From JAZDEY01 sp043808325 [NCBI: Candidatus Eiseniibacteriota bacterium] (GTDB lineage: Bacteria; Arandabacterota; Arandabacteria; Arandabacterales): DNA of 10,131 bases. Numbering within the stretch: position 1 is the first letter of the stretch; each line of letters opens with the position of its first letter. The notes below the pieces were generated by a model. The model did not search any database and was not told the origin of the DNA. It saw nothing but the letters and a program-made list of their open reading frames with translations. A program made the position numbers and the translations under genes. Shown here piece after piece: positions 985-9,952 of the stretch. The stretch is taken from positions 1 to 10,131 of the forward strand of contig JAZDEY010000029.1 in assembly GCA_043808325.1 (NCBI GenBank), in the 5' to 3' direction.

Positions 985-2013
985 CTAGAACTCGTATCCC
1001 AAGCGGAAGACCACCGACTTGGACACCGAAGTAATCTCGTCATCGATGTCGGTGATGACCGATCCGGTGTCATCGACGTCAGGCGTGATCGGATCGTCGC
1101 CGTACCAGGTCTGATCTTGGTCTCCGCTGGTCCTGATCTTGATGAAGTCCGCTCCCATCCCAAGCAGCCAGCCGCGCCCCATTGCCGATCCGCATAATTT
1201 CCACGTGAGTTCGGCGCCGCCGAAATAAGCCTGACCGCTACAGTCTGCCTTAGCAGTCTTGTGCCGGAGCAGGTGGTTGTCCCTGTCCTCGGCGGTTGCG
1301 GTCGGAGAGAACGCAAGATTCATACCCACGCTGAAGTTGGCTGAGGGCTTCACCTGAGCCGCGAGCCCCACGTACGGCAGATGGTACATTATGTCGTAGT
1401 CGAGGACGTTCTCACCCGCAAGCGTGTCAACATCCACACGCACGAAGTTGTCTCCGGCAGGAGCCAACTGCCATCCCGTGATCCCGAGAATCTCATAGGA
1501 GAAGTGCTGGTATCTATATCCCAGTACGGCATCGAGGCCGAATTGCGGAAGTGCAACAAGGCCGATGCGGCCGCTCAGGTCCCCGACGACGGCATCAAGC
1601 TCAGCCACGGATTCGGTATAGCTGTACATGAGACTGTAGTCGTAATCGGGCAGGGTGAACCAGTCAGAATCCTTCATAGGATCGTCGGGATCATCGGTGT
1701 TCGTGCGGAAGCTCAGGGCCAAGGCCCAGGGCCTGGTGCCGTAGCACTTACCCGCTAAGCCCAGAGTGGCCCCTGCCATGAAAATGTCCAAGGGGAACTC
1801 GAGCTCGCTCGCTCCGCCAACTTCGAGGCCGATCTCCGGATCGTAATCGCCGAATTCGATTCGATACTTGGTATAGCCGTCCATCACGCGGCCGTCCGCC
1901 ACGGCGGAGAAGGTCAAGTTGCCACCTAGCGGGCAGCCCCCCGCCGCTAAAGACGGCAGCAGAGCGATGGCCAAGCCGGCGATGAATACGGGAATTCCCA
2001 ACCTCGCGCGCAT
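985..2013 (-). CDS. Omptin-like outer-membrane protease
   Basis: The 342-residue protein starts with a signal peptide (residues 1-24, hydrophobic core PVFIAGLAIALLPSLAA) and ends in alternating residues with terminal Phe (VVFRLGYEF), the C-terminal signature of outer-membrane beta-barrels. Several segments resemble omptins (OmpT, Pla, PgtE): KDSDW at 114-118 matches the D-x-D-W catalytic aspartate motif (D115, D117); LPYVGL (212-217) matches MPYIGL; RDNH at 244-247 matches the D-x-H pair (D245, H247). The interval between the pairs, 128 residues, is close to OmpT's (D85 to D210, 125 residues). Omptins are 10-stranded surface proteases that cut between basic residues and need LPS. The start is fixed by an excellent AAGGAGGA at 2018-2025, 4 bases from the ATG. 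Four cysteines (27, 90, 258, 274) are unusual for the family. Activity is inferred; the match is from memory, not alignment. Confidence 0.8.
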   Translation of the reverse strand: MRARLGIPVFIAGLAIALLPSLAAGGCPLGGNLTFSAVADGRVMDGYTKYRIEFGDYDPEIGLEVGGASELEFPLDIFMAGATLGLAGKCYGTRPWALALSFRTNTDDPDDPMKDSDWFTLPDYDYSLMYSYTESVAELDAVVGDLSGRIGLVALPQFGLDAVLGYRYQHFSYEILGITGWQLAPAGDNFVRVDVDTLAGENVLDYDIMYHLPYVGLAAQVKPSANFSVGMNLAFSPTATAEDRDNHLLRHKTAKADCSGQAYFGGAELTWKLCGSAMGRGWLLGMGADFIKIRTSGDQDQTWYGDDPITPDVDDTGSVITDIDDEITSVSKSVVFRLGYEF

Positions 2014-4226: not shown

Positions 4227-5111
4227 ATGAGATTCCTTGTTACGGGAGTTCTTGTACTGGTGCTTGCTGTATCCGCTTATGGGCTTGAGAAGAAGGCCCT
4301 GCAGATGCGGGAGGACTTTGGCACGGAGCCGATGTACAACTGCTACATGAATTACTACTACTACATTCCTTGCCCGACCAGCTCCTGGTTCTGGTCGTTC
4401 TCCGGCTGGCCCCAGAATTCTGTGGTCGGTCAGGTGTTCAGAATCGGCGACCCCAGCATGTCGACAAGCAAGGGCTGTCCGCCCTATAGCGCCTGCGATC
4501 CATTTAATGCGTTGTTGATAGAGAAATTCCGAGTGCTCGACTTTGCCGGATACGGAACGCTCTATCCGGGGCTTTTCACAGTTGAATTCCAGCTCTGGTG
4601 CTCGACTTGGGATGGTACTCCTGCCGGACCTCCTTTTTGGAGCAGTGGGCCCAAGGAGCTCTGCACCGCAGGGTGGAACTACATCTCTATACCAGGTAAC
4701 TCTGGTTGTGTGTATACCTGTTACACTGATATGGTCGGGGGGAGGCAGGGCTATCCCAGATTCCTGATTACGGCCAAGATGATAGGCAGCAATGCCGTCT
4801 ACCCGCAGTGGGGATTCGACAACATTTCGACCCCGCTCGGGTTGGGTTGCGCGATGCACGACGAGGGCTGCTGCCCGGCTCTCTATCCAAGACCGGCCAC
4901 GGGCCACTATGGCACGATTCACTCCGGCTACTACGGCGTGGACTTCCAGTACTGCCCACCGCAGTGGTTCCTTGATCCGCGCGATTCAACCGGCGACGTA
5001 TACGGCTACGTCGAGTTGGCTTGGCGTGTGTACCTGGTCAACACGGGCCCCTGCGATAACACGCCGACTGAGCCGAGCACCTGGGGTTCGATCAAGTCGA
5101 TGTATAGATAA
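4227..5111 (+). CDS. Secreted Cys/aromatic-rich protein of unknown function, copy 1
   Basis: I do not recognise a named family. The 294-residue protein begins with a signal peptide (residues 1-19, MRFLVTGVLVLVLAVSAYG, probable cleavage before LEKK), so it is exported. The mature part is rich in Cys (13), Tyr, Trp, Pro and Gly and has no second membrane segment. Landmarks are YMNYYYYIPCPTSSWFW (40-56), DFAGYGTLYPGLFTVEFQLW (105-124), SSGPKELCTAGWNYIS (139-154), PRFLITAKM (177-185), WGFDNIST (195-202) and CAMHDEGCCPALYPRP (208-223). The pattern of short beta-like segments (WSSG...GWNY...YPRFLIT...) suggests an all-beta domain held by disulfides; this is inference. GGAGG at 4214-4218 sets the start. 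There is no lipobox, C-terminal sorting domain or transmembrane anchor. A close paralog follows 13 bases downstream. Confidence 0.85.
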   Translation: MRFLVTGVLVLVLAVSAYGLEKKALQMREDFGTEPMYNCYMNYYYYIPCPTSSWFWSFSGWPQNSVVGQVFRIGDPSMSTSKGCPPYSACDPFNALLIEKFRVLDFAGYGTLYPGLFTVEFQLWCSTWDGTPAGPPFWSSGPKELCTAGWNYISIPGNSGCVYTCYTDMVGGRQGYPRFLITAKMIGSNAVYPQWGFDNISTPLGLGCAMHDEGCCPALYPRPATGHYGTIHSGYYGVDFQYCPPQWFLDPRDSTGDVYGYVELAWRVYLVNTGPCDNTPTEPSTWGSIKSMYR

Positions 5112-5124
5112 CGGAGGTGGGACT

Positions 5125-5997
5125 ATGAGATTCCTTGTTACGGGATTGCTTGTACTGGTGCTTGCTGCATCCGCTTATGGGCTTGAGAAGAAGGCCCTGC
5201 AGATGCGCGAGGACTATGGCACGGAGGCGATGTACAACTGTTACATGAATTACTATTACTACATCCCGTGCCCGACCTCGTCCTGGTTCTGGTCGATCTC
5301 CGGCTGGTACCAGAATTCGATGGTCGGCGAGATGTTCACGATTGGCGACCCCAGCATGTTTACGAGCAAGGGTTGCCCACCCTATGCCAGCTGCAACCCG
5401 TGCGAGTTCCCGGGAATAGAGCAACTGCGCGTGCTTGATTTCGCTGGCTACGGCACGCTCTACCCCGGCCTATTCACCGTCAAGTTCCAGCTCTGGTGCG
5501 CGGATGCGAACGGTTGTCCGATTGGGCCGCCTACCTGGGACAGCGGACCGAGGGAACTCTGCACGGCCGGATGGAACTACATAAGCACTTACCCCGGTGG
5601 CTGTGTCTCTAACTGCTATACCAAGATGGTCGGTGGGCTCACCTGCTATCCCAGATTTCTCATCACGGCCAAGATGATAGGCTCCATTGGCACCTATCCC
5701 CAGTGGGGATTCGACAACATCTCCACCCCCGTGAGCCTAGGCTGCGCGATGCACGACCAGGGCTGTTGTCCGGCGCTCTATCCGAGGCCGACGGCCAGTC
5801 ACTACGGCACGATCCATTCGGGGTACTACGGGGTCGATTTCGAGCATTGTCCGCCGCAGTGGTTCCTTGATGGCCGGGATACAACCGGCGAAACATACGG
5901 CTACATTGAATTGGCTTGGCGAGTCTACGTCACGTACGGAATGGACTCGCCGACCCAGCCCAGTACCTGGGGCTCGATCAAGTCGATGTACCGATAG
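5125..5997 (+). CDS. Secreted Cys/aromatic-rich protein of unknown function, copy 2
   Basis: This 290-residue paralog is about 77% identical to copy 1 by eye, with the same signal peptide (1-19), the same mature start LEKKALQMRED and the same C-terminus (GSIKSMYR). The longest conserved blocks are residues 36-57 and the region around WGFDNIST and CAMHDQGCCPALYPRP. Twelve cysteines are shared. Copy 2 has three extra (93, 131, 174) and lacks the C-terminal Cys276 of copy 1, so the disulfide pattern probably differs. Variation concentrates at 91-101, 126-142, 154-175 and 268-280, as expected of surface loops. The frame is open back to 4792, but the start at 5125 is certain: it has its own GGAGGTGG (5113-5120) and signal peptide, and the extension would overlap copy 1 out of frame. 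The 13-base gap indicates co-transcription. Function unknown. Confidence 0.88.
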   Translation: MRFLVTGLLVLVLAASAYGLEKKALQMREDYGTEAMYNCYMNYYYYIPCPTSSWFWSISGWYQNSMVGEMFTIGDPSMFTSKGCPPYASCNPCEFPGIEQLRVLDFAGYGTLYPGLFTVKFQLWCADANGCPIGPPTWDSGPRELCTAGWNYISTYPGGCVSNCYTKMVGGLTCYPRFLITAKMIGSIGTYPQWGFDNISTPVSLGCAMHDQGCCPALYPRPTASHYGTIHSGYYGVDFEHCPPQWFLDGRDTTGETYGYIELAWRVYVTYGMDSPTQPSTWGSIKSMYR

Positions 5998-6015
5998 CGC
6001 CGTCACCGGCTCGCT
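5996..6015. terminator. Possible bidirectional hairpin between convergent genes
   Basis: AGCG-CCG (5996-6002) can pair with CGG-CT-CGCT (6007-6015) around a TCAC loop, with a two-base bulge. It spans the 16-base gap between the stop of copy 2 and the stop of the small membrane protein gene. There is no T-run on either side, so it is at best a weak terminator. Confidence 0.25.
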
Positions 6016-6217
6016 AAGGCTGCGGGGGCTGCTTTCCCTTGAGTGCCGGCCAATCCGTAAAGGCCAAGTAGAAAATCATCAGGATGTTGATAAAGGGAAT
6101 CAGCATCAGAATGGCCAGCGGCCCACTGAAGCCAGCCTTCTCGAAGATCTTCCAGAAGGGTAGGATGATAAGAAGCCCCACAATCACCCACCACACGAAC
6201 ATCAACATGGAAAACAT
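6014..6217 (-). CDS. Small two-helix membrane protein
   Basis: The 67-residue protein has two hydrophobic segments, about residues 4-23 (MLMFVWWVIVGLLIILPFW) and 32-53 (GPLAILMLIPFINILMIFYLAF), joined by a short charged/aromatic turn KIFEKAGFS and followed by a polar tail (TDWPALKGKQPPQP). The layout FPFWKIF-x-KAGFSG...LMLIPFINI...LAF-x-WP recurs in many small uncharacterised bacterial inner-membrane proteins; no function is known to me. The start is well supported: AAGGAGGG lies at 6224-6231, 6 bases before the ATG, with a promoter further upstream. The gene is monocistronic and converges on the Cys-rich pair with a 16-base gap. Codon phase and the strong ribosome binding site make it real despite its size. 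Confidence 0.85.
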   Translation of the reverse strand: MFSMLMFVWWVIVGLLIILPFWKIFEKAGFSGPLAILMLIPFINILMIFYLAFTDWPALKGKQPPQP

Positions 6218-6523: not shown

Positions 6524-9500
6524 ATGAGCACGCGGCTTTTTGCATTGGTGGTTGCGGTCTCACTGGTCGTCGTTGCGGCGGGCGCCGGGACGGCCCGTGC
6601 GGAGATCAGCACATTCATCTATAATGTCCCATCTCCTGAACTGCGGACCGCAGGCGGGAGTGTATATTTTGCGGTCAAGGGATTCGGAACCAGCACTACA
6701 CCCTATTATCCCGTGCTGCCGACCAAGAGAGTGAACTACGAGATTCCATTCGGGGCCCAGGATGTCAGCGTGACCATTATGCCTTCCGCTGCGCAATCTC
6801 TTGGGATCTTCCCGAACTACTTGATGCGGCAGCCCCCGATGCCGCTCGGCAACCCTGACTACACGCCGCCCGCGCGGCCCAAGCAAATCCCGGACGTTAT
6901 CCCCTTGGAGTACTACGCCTATCGCGGCGAGCGCGAATTCCGCGGGCACCGTCTGGTGGAGATTGTGCTCTACCCGGTTCAGTACAAGTCGAGTACGGGC
7001 GCAGTTGACCATGTCACTTCATATTCGATCAGCGTCTTCTACTCATTGCCCATGAGTCTGAAGGCTTCGGAGGAGATTGCCGCCAGAGGACGCTCATCGG
7101 CGTTCGAGCCCCTGGCCCGCGGCATCATCGAGAACTATGATGAGATGAATCCATCGCTCCTCGAAGGATCTCCGGGGCTAGAGGGTGGCCCGGGCGCACC
7201 CGCGCCGCTCCACGATCTCTCGAATCCGGCCTACGCGGTCATCACGACATCGACTTACCAGACGATGGCCCAGACTCTTGCTGACTGGAAGACCAAGAAG
7301 GGTGTCCCGACTCAGGTTTACACGGTCACCTGGATAACCAGCACCTACCCGGGCTACGATACGCAGGAGAAGATTAGGAACTTCCTGCGCCTGGATAACA
7401 GCACGCCGCGCTTTGACTACGTGTTTCTGCTTGGCGACACCAACGTTCTTCCGGACCGCAAGTGCAAGTGCGAATATGACGGCGACCTGGTGCCGTGCGA
7501 TTACTACTTCTCGGACGTGGTCGACGGTGCAATCGGCGCGGGCTACGACTGGGATTCCGATAACGACCATATATGGGGCGAGTTGAGTGGCGACCAGATA
7601 ACCTGGCTCCCCGACACCTACGTGGGGCGTATGGCGACAAGGTCCACTACCGAAGCGACCAACTACGTCAATGCGGTGATCTCCTACGAGAAGAATCCTC
7701 CCGCGGGCAGTTGGATGAAGAAGGTGGTCTTCGGGCCGTCGTTTGCGAATTTCGTGACGTCAAGCTATGGCCCGACCGATATGGCGTGCGTTTCCGAATT
7801 GGTGAGAACCAACCTCCTGGGCGGGACCGGCGTGACTTATGACAGGATCTACGAGGCCGCCGGCATCTATCCTTCCACTTTTACCCGTGACTACGATCTG
7901 ACTGCAACCAACTTCCGCGACCGGGTAGCCTTAGGTTGCGGGCTTGCCTTCCCAAGCGGCCACGGCAACTATCTGGGCAATTACAGAACAATCTGGGCTG
8001 GCGATTATAACAGCAACGGGTACTGCGATACCGGCGAGACCAGTACGTTCGACCTGTGCACTCAGTCCTACAATCCGGCAACCGGCGCGAAGAGGCCATT
8101 TGTGCTGGTCGGCGCCTGCCTTGCCGGTGAGTTCGACCGCACAGCGGCATGCCTTGGCGACTTCATCATCAACAACTGGGGCATCGGCGACGTTTCCTCG
8201 AGCAGGACGAGTTACTACTGCGTTGAGTGGAACGATCCCGACTGGCCCTGGAACCAGGGGCAGGAGTACCGGTGGTGGCAGGAGATCTTCACCAACGGGA
8301 AGCACCATATGGGCCAGATCCACGGCGACAACAAGTACCACTACGTTCAGGACTTCGCTGCGATCGAAGGCGGCGCCTACGGGCCGGATCAGGATGACGC
8401 GTCGCGCAAGAACATGTTTAGCTCCAACCTCTTCGGCGATCCCGAACTCCCGATCTGGACCGAGGCCGCAGCGTCCTTGAGTGTGGTCCACAACGCTACA
8501 CTGCCCAAGGCGCCCTCGACCTACATTGTGACAGTGACATCGGGCGGGAGTCCGCTTGCCGGCGCCACCGTCTGCCTGTGGAAGGGGACGGAAGTTTATC
8601 TGGTGCAGGATACCAATGGCTCGGGCATTGCGACCTTCAATCCTTCGCCCACGACCACGGGCACAATGTATGTGACGGTCACCAAGCACAATTACATTCC
8701 TTATGAGGGATCGGCGACGGTTCAGGAAGTAGGCGATACGACGCCGCCAACGGTCATAGTGAATGCTCCGGACGGTGGCGAGAGCTGGGGCATCGGAAGC
8801 ACCCACAACATCAACTGGACGGCAACCGATAACGTTGGTGTGACCTCGATCACCATAGTCCTGTCCCGGGACGGCGGGACCACCTTCCCCGATACCCTGG
8901 CGAAGGGCGAGGCCAACGATAGTGTGTATCCTTGGCTGGTGCCCTCACCACCCAGCACGACTGCGCGGATAAAGGTGATTGCCTATGATGCCGCCGGGAA
9001 CAGTGGTGCGGACGCTAGCAATTCGAACTTCCAGATTTTCGATGGCACCCCGCCGGCGGTTACCCTGAATGCTCCCAACGGTGGCGAGGGTTGGGCCATC
9101 GACAGCTTCTTTGATATCACCTGGACGGCGACCGATAACGTGGGTGTCGCCTCAATAACCCTGATCCTGTCTCGAGACGGTGCGATGACCTTCCCCGATA
9201 CCCTGGCGAAGGGCGAGGTCAACGATGGGATCTATCACTGGCAGGTGCCCCCGCCGCCCACTACGACCGCGCGGATAAAGGTGATTGCCTATGATGCCGC
9301 CGGGAATCTCAACGCGGACATGAGCAACGCCAACTTCCAAATGGTCGATACCACGCCGCCAACAGTCACCGTGACAGCGCCCAACGGCGGTGAGATCTGG
9401 GACATCGGGAGCACCTATGACATCACTTGGACGGCTACCGATAACATCGGCATCACCGCAATAGCGATCTTGCTCTCCTCCGACGGGGGCGCGGCCTTCC

Positions 9501-9952
9501 CCGATACCCTGGCTGCGGGGGAAGCAAACGACGGCATCTACTCGTGGCTTGTTGAGTCCGGTAGCACGCTTGAAGCGCGGATAAAGGTGATCGGCTACGA
9601 CGCTGCCGGCAATAGCGGAGCTGACCTGAGCAATGCCGATTTCGAGCTCTACGATCCGGCTTCAGGGGTCACTGGAGGCAAAGAGATCCCCGAGCGTCTT
9701 GTGATTTCGGGCAACGCGCCGAATCCTTTCGGTGAGAGCACAACCATCAGGTTCGGGCTGCCCACCAAGGGGCAGATCGAAATGGATGTGTTCGATGTGT
9801 CGGGCCGCAAGGTCGCGAGGCTCGCCCAGGGAGACTATCCCGAGGGCTATCACAAGGTGGAATGGCACGGCATCTCCGGCCGAGGCATATATTTCGTGAG
9901 GCTGCGCCTTGGCGAGGAGGAAGTGACTCGGAAGATCGTGATCTCCAAATAG
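6524..9952 (+). CDS. Secreted C25-family (gingipain-like) cysteine protease with Kre9-like repeats and C-terminal sorting domain
   Basis: The 1142-residue exported protease is organised as follows: signal peptide 1-26 (cleavage after TARA); gingipain-type propeptide about 27-230; C25 catalytic domain about 235-640; Ig-like domain about 650-735; three 102-residue NGGE...ITWTATDN...YDAAGN repeats (739-1044) resembling Kre9/KNH-type beta domains; and a FlgD-like/type IX-style C-terminal domain (about 1058-1142: NAPNPFGESTTIRFGLP ... GIYFVRL ... RKIVISK). Catalytic His480 lies in SGHGN and Cys532 in VGACLAGEFD, as in gingipains. They are 52 residues apart against 33 in RgpB because of an insert carrying a calcium-loop motif (494-505). 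Another acidic loop lies at 342-353. The start has AGGGAGG 7 bases upstream. It is likely made as a zymogen and anchored or released at the cell surface. No secretion-system gene is nearby, and substrate preference cannot be read. Confidence 0.92.
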   Translation: MSTRLFALVVAVSLVVVAAGAGTARAEISTFIYNVPSPELRTAGGSVYFAVKGFGTSTTPYYPVLPTKRVNYEIPFGAQDVSVTIMPSAAQSLGIFPNYLMRQPPMPLGNPDYTPPARPKQIPDVIPLEYYAYRGEREFRGHRLVEIVLYPVQYKSSTGAVDHVTSYSISVFYSLPMSLKASEEIAARGRSSAFEPLARGIIENYDEMNPSLLEGSPGLEGGPGAPAPLHDLSNPAYAVITTSTYQTMAQTLADWKTKKGVPTQVYTVTWITSTYPGYDTQEKIRNFLRLDNSTPRFDYVFLLGDTNVLPDRKCKCEYDGDLVPCDYYFSDVVDGAIGAGYDWDSDNDHIWGELSGDQITWLPDTYVGRMATRSTTEATNYVNAVISYEKNPPAGSWMKKVVFGPSFANFVTSSYGPTDMACVSELVRTNLLGGTGVTYDRIYEAAGIYPSTFTRDYDLTATNFRDRVALGCGLAFPSGHGNYLGNYRTIWAGDYNSNGYCDTGETSTFDLCTQSYNPATGAKRPFVLVGACLAGEFDRTAACLGDFIINNWGIGDVSSSRTSYYCVEWNDPDWPWNQGQEYRWWQEIFTNGKHHMGQIHGDNKYHYVQDFAAIEGGAYGPDQDDASRKNMFSSNLFGDPELPIWTEAAASLSVVHNATLPKAPSTYIVTVTSGGSPLAGATVCLWKGTEVYLVQDTNGSGIATFNPSPTTTGTMYVTVTKHNYIPYEGSATVQEVGDTTPPTVIVNAPDGGESWGIGSTHNINWTATDNVGVTSITIVLSRDGGTTFPDTLAKGEANDSVYPWLVPSPPSTTARIKVIAYDAAGNSGADASNSNFQIFDGTPPAVTLNAPNGGEGWAIDSFFDITWTATDNVGVASITLILSRDGAMTFPDTLAKGEVNDGIYHWQVPPPPTTTARIKVIAYDAAGNLNADMSNANFQMVDTTPPTVTVTAPNGGEIWDIGSTYDITWTATDNIGITAIAILLSSDGGAAFPDTLAAGEANDGIYSWLVESGSTLEARIKVIGYDAAGNSGADLSNADFELYDPASGVTGGKEIPERLVISGNAPNPFGESTTIRFGLPTKGQIEMDVFDVSGRKVARLAQGDYPEGYHKVEWHGISGRGIYFVRLRLGEEEVTRKIVISK
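7547..7582 (+). other. Acidic calcium-loop-like motif in the C25 domain
   Basis: Residues 342-353 (DWDSDNDHIWGE) place Asp at 1, 3 and 5 and Glu at 12, as in a calcium-binding loop, though Asn replaces the usual Gly at position 6. Acidic loops of this kind at this point, between YYFSD and the DTYVGRM strand, are common in C25 relatives. Calcium binding is inferred. Confidence 0.5.
8003..8038 (+). other. EF-hand-like loop inserted between catalytic His and Cys
   Basis: Residues 494-505 (DYNSNGYCDTGE) fit the 12-residue EF-hand loop: Asp1, Asn3, Asn5, Gly6, Asp9, Glu12. Position 8 is Cys rather than Ile/Leu/Val. The loop lies within the extra segment that lengthens the His480-Cys532 interval. 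No flanking EF-hand helices are evident, so it is more like the isolated dockerin-style loops of secreted proteins. Confidence 0.55.
8738..9655 (+). repeat. Three in-frame 306-bp tandem repeats
   Basis: Units are 8738-9043, 9044-9349 and 9350-9655, each exactly 102 codons and without indels between them. Units 1 and 2 share an exact 38-base run (8963-9000 and 9269-9306) and an exact 31-base run around the FPDTLAKGE codons. Unit 3 is more diverged (AAGE for AKGE, and a changed linker ESGSTLEARIK). Each unit encodes one beta-sandwich-type module beginning TPP-x-V and ending AAGN...SN-x-x-F. Confidence 0.92.
9695..9949 (+). other. C-terminal FlgD-like / type IX-style sorting domain
   Basis: Residues 1058-1142 carry the usual order of this domain: N-P-F-x-x-x-T-T-I-x-F-x-L-P near the start, V-F-D-V-S-G-R-K-V in the middle, then G-x-H-x-V-x-W, GIYFVRL and a basic end (TRKIVISK). 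In Bacteroidetes such domains direct export by the type IX system. In candidate FCB phyla the same sequence pattern is widespread, but the export route is less certain. Confidence 0.8.

What the first reader, a model, noticed from the sequence alone, without database searches (positions are those of the whole stretch)
4227..5997. Tandem secreted Cys/aromatic-rich paralogs of no family I can name
Two adjacent exported proteins of 294 and 290 residues are about 77% identical, with 12 shared cysteines and unusual Tyr/Trp-rich blocks such as YMNYYYYIPC and CAMHDEGCCPALYPRP. Neither has a lipobox, transmembrane anchor or sorting domain. Tight co-transcription and retention of both copies suggest a selected role, for example a surface-layer, adhesin or extracellular structural protein. 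The conserved core with clustered variable stretches looks like a fixed beta scaffold with variable loops.
Basis: partly seen in the sequence, partly recalled or inferred. Interest (0 to 1): 0.7.

Follow-up and report, generated by a model that had tools for sequence, protein, structure and literature searches.

The report
New C-terminal tag on secreted proteins
Two odd neighbouring exported proteins end in a short peptide (roughly ...TTWGxIKxLYR) that also closes about 8 to 23 exported proteins per genome, most of them of unrelated kinds, in a little-known bacterial phylum, so they probably carry a new sort of C-terminal address label.

Summary
Genes A (4227-5111) and B (5125-5997) are tandem, exported-looking, 79% identical, share 12 Cys and match no Pfam, NCBIfam, PHROG or PDB entry. 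Their family is in 7 of 8 genomes of one small phylum, often in tandem; of 36 other genomes none matched above noise.

All 24 homologues whose natural end is visible finish in W-[GS]-x-[IVL]-K-x-[LMI]-Y, 22 of them with Arg-stop. That ending recurs 131 times in the phylum's 8 genomes (8-23 each; reversed control 0), on bodies that fall into 39 blastp clusters and are mostly exported (95 of 109, against 98 of 266 control ORFs). The linker before it, consensus GPSATEPTT, is conserved although it was not in the search pattern.

Elsewhere the ending is rarer and mostly single-copy (73 of 395 genomes of a Bacteroidetes-labelled phylum). Of 23 tag-positive genomes searched, 22 have the T9SS translocon SprA over cut-off.

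Best explanation: a short C-terminal sorting or anchoring tag, neither a T9SS CTD nor a membrane-segment CTERM. Its reader, and any T9SS link, are inferred.

The parts
4227..5111 (+). gene A, exported Cys/aromatic-rich protein of 294 aa with C-terminal tag
   Evidence: no family hit
5125..5997 (+). gene B, paralogue of 290 aa with C-terminal tag
   Evidence: no family hit
4227..4283 (+). signal-peptide-like start of A (residues 1-19)
   Evidence: by eye from the sequence; the N-terminus is conserved in the family
5125..5181 (+). signal-peptide-like start of B (residues 1-19)
   Evidence: by eye from the sequence; conserved in the family
5112..5124 (+). spacer between A and B with a GGAGG ribosome-binding-like site
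5055..5081 (+). linker of the tag of A (9 codons before the Trp)
   Evidence: corresponds to the conserved linker columns
5082..5111 (+). tag core of A, WGSIKSMYR, and stop
5941..5967 (+). linker of the tag of B (9 codons before the Trp)
   Evidence: corresponds to the conserved linker columns
5968..5997 (+). tag core of B, WGSIKSMYR, and stop
6524..9952 (+). context: C25 (gingipain-like) peptidase with a T9SS type A sorting tail, 526 bp downstream; it bears the known signal, not the tag
   Evidence: Peptidase_C25 5e-38; TIGR04183 3e-10

Best explanation
A and B belong to an exported protein family known here only from one small phylum. Like 8 to 23 proteins per genome of that phylum, they carry a short C-terminal tag: a flexible linker (consensus GPSATEPTT) and W-[GS]-x-[IV]-K-[AS]-[LM]-[YF]-R-COOH. 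The tag would be a separate, much smaller signal used mainly by small proteins, beside the T9SS type A CTDs of the same genomes.
For: 131 C-terminal matches in 8 genomes, reversed control 0. Found by profile rather than by the pattern, 24 of 24 homologues with a visible end carry the tag core, 22 ending in Arg-stop. 115 comparable bodies fall into 39 blastp clusters. 95 of 109 complete tagged ORFs are signal-peptide-like against 98 of 266 control ORFs. Linker positions outside the pattern carry 1.5-2.9 bits (1.6-2.7 with one sequence per cluster). The pattern also admitted Ser at the last position and Arg after the Trp, yet all 129 keys have Arg last and Gly or Ser after the Trp. All six Arg codons are used, so the constraint is on protein. 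SprA is over cut-off in 8 of 8 genomes of the phylum and in 14 of 15 tag-positive genomes elsewhere; 0 of 14 genomes without any SprA match has the tag. In 4 of 11 loci of the single-copy tagged protein a PorD-like gene is next door.
Against: No reader has been found and no localisation is known. 16 of 30 tag-negative genomes also have SprA, and the association is confounded by ancestry. The PorD-like neighbour was scanned in one locus only and is below the NCBIfam cut-off (64 of 170 bits). In other loci the tagged gene lies beside a metalloprotease, miaA or a beta-CASP nuclease. One of 39 representatives matches FlgD_ig (3e-5), a fold related to T9SS tails, and I did not trace it. The signal-peptide test is my own lenient heuristic. 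Two of 24 family members end in R-E or in E instead of R.
Confidence: 0.6

Rival explanations
1. The tag is itself a minimal, non-canonical type IX secretion signal: its last residues imitate the terminal strand (motif E) of a T9SS CTD and take small proteins through SprA without an Ig-like CTD.
For: SprA and 60-137 TIGR04183 matches in each of the 8 genomes. In P. gingivalis the last 22 residues of HBP35 were reported to hold the targeting signal, and a conserved basic residue sits near the end of CTDs (PMC11285876 section 2.2; PMC11969387 passages).
Against: No TIGR04183 or Por_Secre_tail hit: ten isolated tails, 39 representatives in Pfam, and the 25 of 26 NCBIfam families shown. The GxY of motif D is missing. 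T9SS C-termini tolerate extension, whereas 22 of 24 tagged family members stop exactly after the Arg. 16 SprA-positive genomes lack the tag.
Confidence: 0.2
2. The tag is a docking peptide for assembly, not sorting: free C-termini of many exported proteins plug into one extracellular or periplasmic scaffold, as dockerins do with cohesins.
For: One small peptide on many beta-rich exported bodies with a flexible linker. In other phyla usually a single bearer, which could be part of a conserved complex.
Against: No scaffold with repeated binding modules was looked for or seen. The motif has neither the length nor the duplicated repeat of dockerins (recalled knowledge).
Confidence: 0.12
3. The tag is the conserved last strand of a common beta domain, so the tagged proteins are merely remote homologues of each other.
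For: Bodies are mostly small and look beta-rich, and blastp at E 1e-3 would miss remote homology.
Against: The same ending closes representatives hitting beta-helix, rhodanese, lamin tail, PD40 and CBM20 models and a small single-copy protein elsewhere. A Pro/Thr/Ser/Glu-rich linker precedes it.
Confidence: 0.05

Closest known systems
T9SS type A C-terminal domain (TIGR04183 / PF18962)
   Same: C-terminal, on many unrelated proteins with signal peptides, in the same genomes; a basic residue at the end.
   Different: A CTD is an Ig-like domain of about 70 residues, 40-51 in the short Prevotella form (PMC11969387 passages). The tag core is 9 residues, matches no CTD model and has no GxY motif.
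PEP-CTERM / exosortase and GlyGly-CTERM / rhombosortase
   Same: Short C-terminal homology region, several copies per genome if present, on otherwise different exported proteins (PMC1569441 passages; PMC3237569 listing only).
   Different: Those classes have motif + transmembrane helix + basic cluster. The tag has no hydrophobic segment, and no paired enzyme is known.
Single-copy small exported protein ending in RxTWGSIKA[ML]FR or TWGMIKEMFR (unnamed; FnIII-like by eye only)
   Same: Signal-peptide-like start and the same C-terminal core.
   Different: Usually one copy per genome; basic residues rather than an acidic/Pro linker before the Trp; Phe rather than Tyr. A profile of its body finds nothing among the 129 tagged ORFs of the window's phylum. 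It has no Pfam or NCBIfam hit over cut-off.

Membership tests
T9SS type A cargo (CTD) | C-terminal domain matching TIGR04183 / PF18962 | tested here: not met
   A and B: no hit; ten isolated tails: no hit; 39 representatives: no Por_Secre_tail in Pfam at E 0.01, TIGR04183 not among the 25 of 26 NCBIfam families shown
T9SS type A cargo (CTD) | T9SS translocon (SprA) in the genome | tested here: met
   8 of 8 genomes of the phylum of G023 over cut-off; the window's own genome is not held
T9SS type A cargo (CTD) | N-terminal signal peptide | tested here: met
   95 of 109 complete tagged ORFs by heuristic against 98 of 266 controls; A and B by eye
T9SS type A cargo (CTD) | secretion and attachment depend on the T9SS | not testable with these tools
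   needs an experiment
PEP-CTERM / GlyGly-CTERM class | C-terminal transmembrane helix followed by a basic cluster | tested here: not met
   column counts of the last 26 residues show no hydrophobic segment
PEP-CTERM / GlyGly-CTERM class | several unrelated proteins per genome with the same C-terminal region | tested here: met
   8-23 matches per genome, 39 clusters
PEP-CTERM / GlyGly-CTERM class | paired processing enzyme (exosortase, rhombosortase) | not tested
   no search for these enzymes was run
Lipoprotein | lipobox Cys at the signal-peptide cleavage site | tested here: not met
   1 of 95 tagged signal peptides is lipobox-like by regular expression; none in A or B by eye

The most novel reading that the evidence does not exclude
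An undescribed protein-sorting system: a 9-residue C-terminal address W-[GS]-x-[IVL]-K-x-[LMI]-[YF]-R-COOH with its own conserved reader in the envelope. It would be old, shared by several T9SS-bearing phyla where it usually serves a single small client, and it expanded in the window's phylum into a label for up to about 20 small exported proteins working alongside the T9SS CTD.
Probability: 0.45. Interest if true: 0.9.

Novelty: new variant of a known kind. Interest (0 to 1): 0.78.

Why it matters
Short C-terminal homology regions have led to new processing or secretion machinery before (PEP-CTERM, GlyGly-CTERM, T9SS CTD). This one is unusually short, has no membrane segment, is abundant in a phylum whose only named record here is a metagenome-assembled 'bacterium', and survives as a single copy in many genomes of a Bacteroidetes-labelled phylum, where a cultured carrier may make it testable. 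It would also let annotators group many nameless exported proteins into one class.

Tried and rejected
AlphaFold2 on mature A+B (two rows) gave mean pLDDT 29, so no fold search was run. I did not offer the genome search homologues to the predictor, because its stated rule lists only window proteins and loci of other tools.

A WGFDNI[ST]T-type DNA pattern in viral contigs gave two matches, rejected as chance (short alignments, best E 0.035). Family searches in viral contigs, plasmids and phages found nothing. PDB by sequence: nothing for A, one hit at E 1.4 for the pair, nothing for the 19-row profile.

A partner gene beside the tagged genes: around the 11 loci of the single-copy tagged protein two neighbours recur, a PorD-like gene (4 loci, one scanned) and an MXAN_6640-like putative metalloprotease (4 loci, one scanned, over cut-off), but others lie beside miaA or a beta-CASP nuclease. 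There is no universal neighbour.

Helix or strand for the tag: mean hydrophobic moments 0.59 at 100 degrees and 0.51 at 180 degrees; undecided.

One search, an alignment of the in-frame-TGA genes, used wrong coordinates for the three minus-strand rows and was discarded; redone.

Literature: six literal tag peptides found 0 papers. Searches around C-terminal sorting signals, T9SS and candidate phyla listed no paper that I recognised as describing such a tag; I read only listings, plus passages of three papers and the outline and one section of a fourth. Only the CC-licensed PMC library was searched. A search for the bin name M3-30 listed one Bohai Sea sediment paper, which I did not open.

Full report
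1. The observation. They are 79% identical, share 12 cysteines and begin with a signal-peptide-like stretch (by eye). Only 13 nt with a GGAGG separate them. dN/dS is about 0.16 (NG86), so both copies are under purifying selection. Neither matches Pfam, NCBIfam or PHROGs at E 1. PDB sequence searches with A, with the pair and with a 19-row profile gave one meaningless hit at E 1.4. Plasmids and phages (tblastn of B) and viral contigs gave no relative.

2. Finding relatives. No genome is held for the window. A first scan of named genome contigs found no relative. A profile of A and B then found the family in one of 37 of these genomes at E 4e-88 (G023, which holds L049, record JALGZP010000022.1, 'MAG: bacterium isolate M3-30_Bin_374'); two others gave noise at E 0.2 and 0.4. 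The phylum of G023 is represented by 8 genomes, 7 of which have the family. Copies are often in tandem: four in a row on G039:C152, pairs on G023:C153, G038:C330, G042:C256 and (second copy cut) G042:C166. The 17 homologues aligned are 48-56% identical to B. Five of the 12 Cys shared by A and B are invariant in all 19 rows (C49, C125, C164, C207, C214). None of the 19 has a Pfam match at E 1. That the window comes from the same phylum is inferred from this distribution, not shown.

3. The tag. Two weak profile matches covered only the last 24-30 positions in otherwise different frames (G043:C344 at E 0.0015, G042:C404 at E 0.06). That led to the C-terminus. A DNA pattern for W-[G/S/R]-x-[I/V/L/M]-K-x-[I/V/L/M]-[Y/F]-[R/S]-stop (or TGG) occurs 131 times in the 8 genomes: 23, 14, 21, 11, 13, 20, 8 and 21, with 0 for the reversed pattern. 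G044 lacks the family but has 21 matches. In the window it occurs twice, at the ends of A and B, against 0 in 200 shuffles. I read 128 of the 131; three were not fetched (G038:C247, G039:C171:5394, G040:C348). This gave 129 keys by last 60 residues, one being the same gene cut by a locus end. Trp and Lys are fixed by the pattern. But all 129 end in Arg although Ser was admitted, all have Gly or Ser after the Trp although Arg was admitted, and none has TGG in place of a stop. Positions -17 to -9, which the pattern did not ask for, carry 1.5-2.9 bits, or 1.6-2.7 with one sequence per body cluster, consensus G-P-[ST]-A-T-E-P-[TS]-[TS]; the two columns before them carry 0.4-0.9 bits. These are plain entropies without background correction. 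All six Arg codons occur at the last position, so the conservation is at protein level.

4. Is it terminal, modular and exported? Terminal: of 31 distinct family ORFs found by profile, 7 do not reach the natural end (contig or locus ends, broken frames). The other 24 all end in the tag core, 22 as Arg-stop, one as Arg-Glu-stop and one with Glu in place of Arg. In the fetched loci the protein motif is C-terminal 130 times and not quite terminal once, that one being the Arg-Glu case; these loci were chosen for tags, so this count is biased. Modular: 115 bodies long enough to compare fall into 39 single-linkage blastp clusters, the largest (23) being the window family; 14 keys were too short and were left out. 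Pfam hits among the 39 representatives at E 0.01 are scattered: DUF7901 in 2, and one each for lamin tail, beta-helix, rhodanese, DUF5689, CBM20, PD40, FlgD_ig, CARDB and Chlam_PMP. Exported: 95 of 109 5'-complete tagged ORFs pass a signal-peptide heuristic against 98 of 266 other ORFs of the same loci (Fisher p 4e-20; with stricter start choice 88 of 109 against 74 of 266). The heuristic is mine and lenient. Of the 14 failures, 5 are ORFs that begin at a conserved in-frame TGA and have a hydrophobic, signal-like start upstream in the same frame. One of the 95 looks like a lipoprotein. The median length of the 95 is 248 aa.

5. Distribution. In 45 genomes of other groups reached through the epimerase loci, 15 have 1-4 matches (19 in all) and the control has 0. 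I read all 19: each is on an ORF of 125 or more codons, and 17 look exported by eye; L145 runs off its locus and L146 shows no signal peptide. Eleven (L134-L144) are one small protein, FnIII-like by eye, without a Pfam or NCBIfam hit over cut-off in the two members scanned. G004 (a Coatesbacteria MAG) has four different tagged proteins. In the phylum of G051 (record labelled Bacteroidetes) 73 of 395 genomes match, all but two of them once; the reversed control matches 3 genomes and one forward match (L246) is TGG, not a stop. Of the 8 loci returned there, the other seven are the same small protein; the remaining matches were not read. Coatesbacteria phylum: 2 of 14. WOR-3 phylum: 3 of 147, of which only L270, a beta-helix-like protein, is a plausible bearer; L269 and L271 are ORFs of 10-11 codons. 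A Clostridiales-labelled phylum as background: 2 of 297, on ORFs of 46 and 62 codons without a clear signal peptide, and 1 reversed match. So in this sample heavy multi-copy use is seen only in the phylum of G023, single-copy use is broader, and the chance level is low.

6. T9SS. SprA is over cut-off in 8 of 8 genomes of the phylum. TIGR04183 gives 60-137 matches per genome at E 0.001 (2 of 14 control genomes ring); the first 20 listed frames have a median near 690 aa, longer than tagged proteins. Of the 45 other genomes, SprA is over cut-off in 14 of 15 tag-positive ones (G031 has only weak matches) and in 16 of 30 tag-negative ones. None of the 14 genomes without any SprA match has the tag. 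This is confounded by ancestry. In four loci (L158-L161) the tagged gene lies beside a PorD-like gene; in L158 the tagged ORF was hidden by my greedy ORF choice and is placed. Only the L160 neighbour was scanned: Pfam DUF4835 over cut-off, NCBIfam PorD 64 bits against a cut-off of 170. The tag matches no T9SS CTD model tested and lacks the GxY described for short and long CTDs (PMC11969387, passages). One review passage calls CTD proteins restricted to Bacteroidota (PMC10202324); the TIGR04183 counts here suggest otherwise, although the phylum could not be named.

7. What it does. Shown: a conserved, terminal, modular peptide on many unrelated proteins with export signals. Inferred: recognition by one envelope factor, hence sorting or anchoring, as in comparable classes (PEP-CTERM: PMC1569441 passages; GlyGly-CTERM: PMC3237569 listing; T9SS CTD). 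More speculative: the T9SS link. The role of the A/B body stays open; a surface-binding or structural part is the default guess, and the failed prediction adds nothing.

8. Novelty. The tag is in neither Pfam nor NCBIfam release 20 as far as ten isolated tails and 39 full proteins show (one NCBIfam family was not displayed). Six literal tag peptides occur in no paper of the held library. As a kind of thing, a C-terminal signal, it is known; this motif, its lack of a membrane segment and its distribution appear new. Group names here come from record titles.

Noticed in passing
L072 (TGA at 1353-1355) and homologues in L190, L199, L206, L228: Candidate selenoprotein: five tagged, exported-looking homologues (5 genomes) have a conserved in-frame TGA with the same frame on both sides and an invariant 14-nt GTCGCCGGGAGCGA starting 21 nt after it; the hairpin is in the predicted fold of 4 of 5 (not L206). 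tRNA-Sec is over cut-off in 7 of 8 genomes of the phylum (not G023).
   Followed up: partly
phylum of G023, 8 genomes: 60-137 T9SS type A CTD matches per genome in a phylum whose only named record is 'bacterium', whereas a review passage calls CTD proteins restricted to Bacteroidota (PMC10202324).
   Followed up: no
L134-L144 and L247-L253: A small single-copy exported protein (FnIII-like by eye) whose C-terminus RxTWGSIKAMFR is far better conserved than its body recurs across several phyla.
   Followed up: partly
window 985-2013, minus strand: Omptin-like outer-membrane protein (Pfam Omptin 4.7e-13, over its cut-off; NCBIfam omptin models far below theirs).
   Followed up: no
window 6014-6217, minus strand: ORF for a 67-aa protein with two hydrophobic stretches between B and the C25 peptidase gene.
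   Followed up: no
G044:C161 (1311, 2368, 3140 and 4056): Four tagged ORFs in a row on one contig of 4.9 kb.
   Followed up: no
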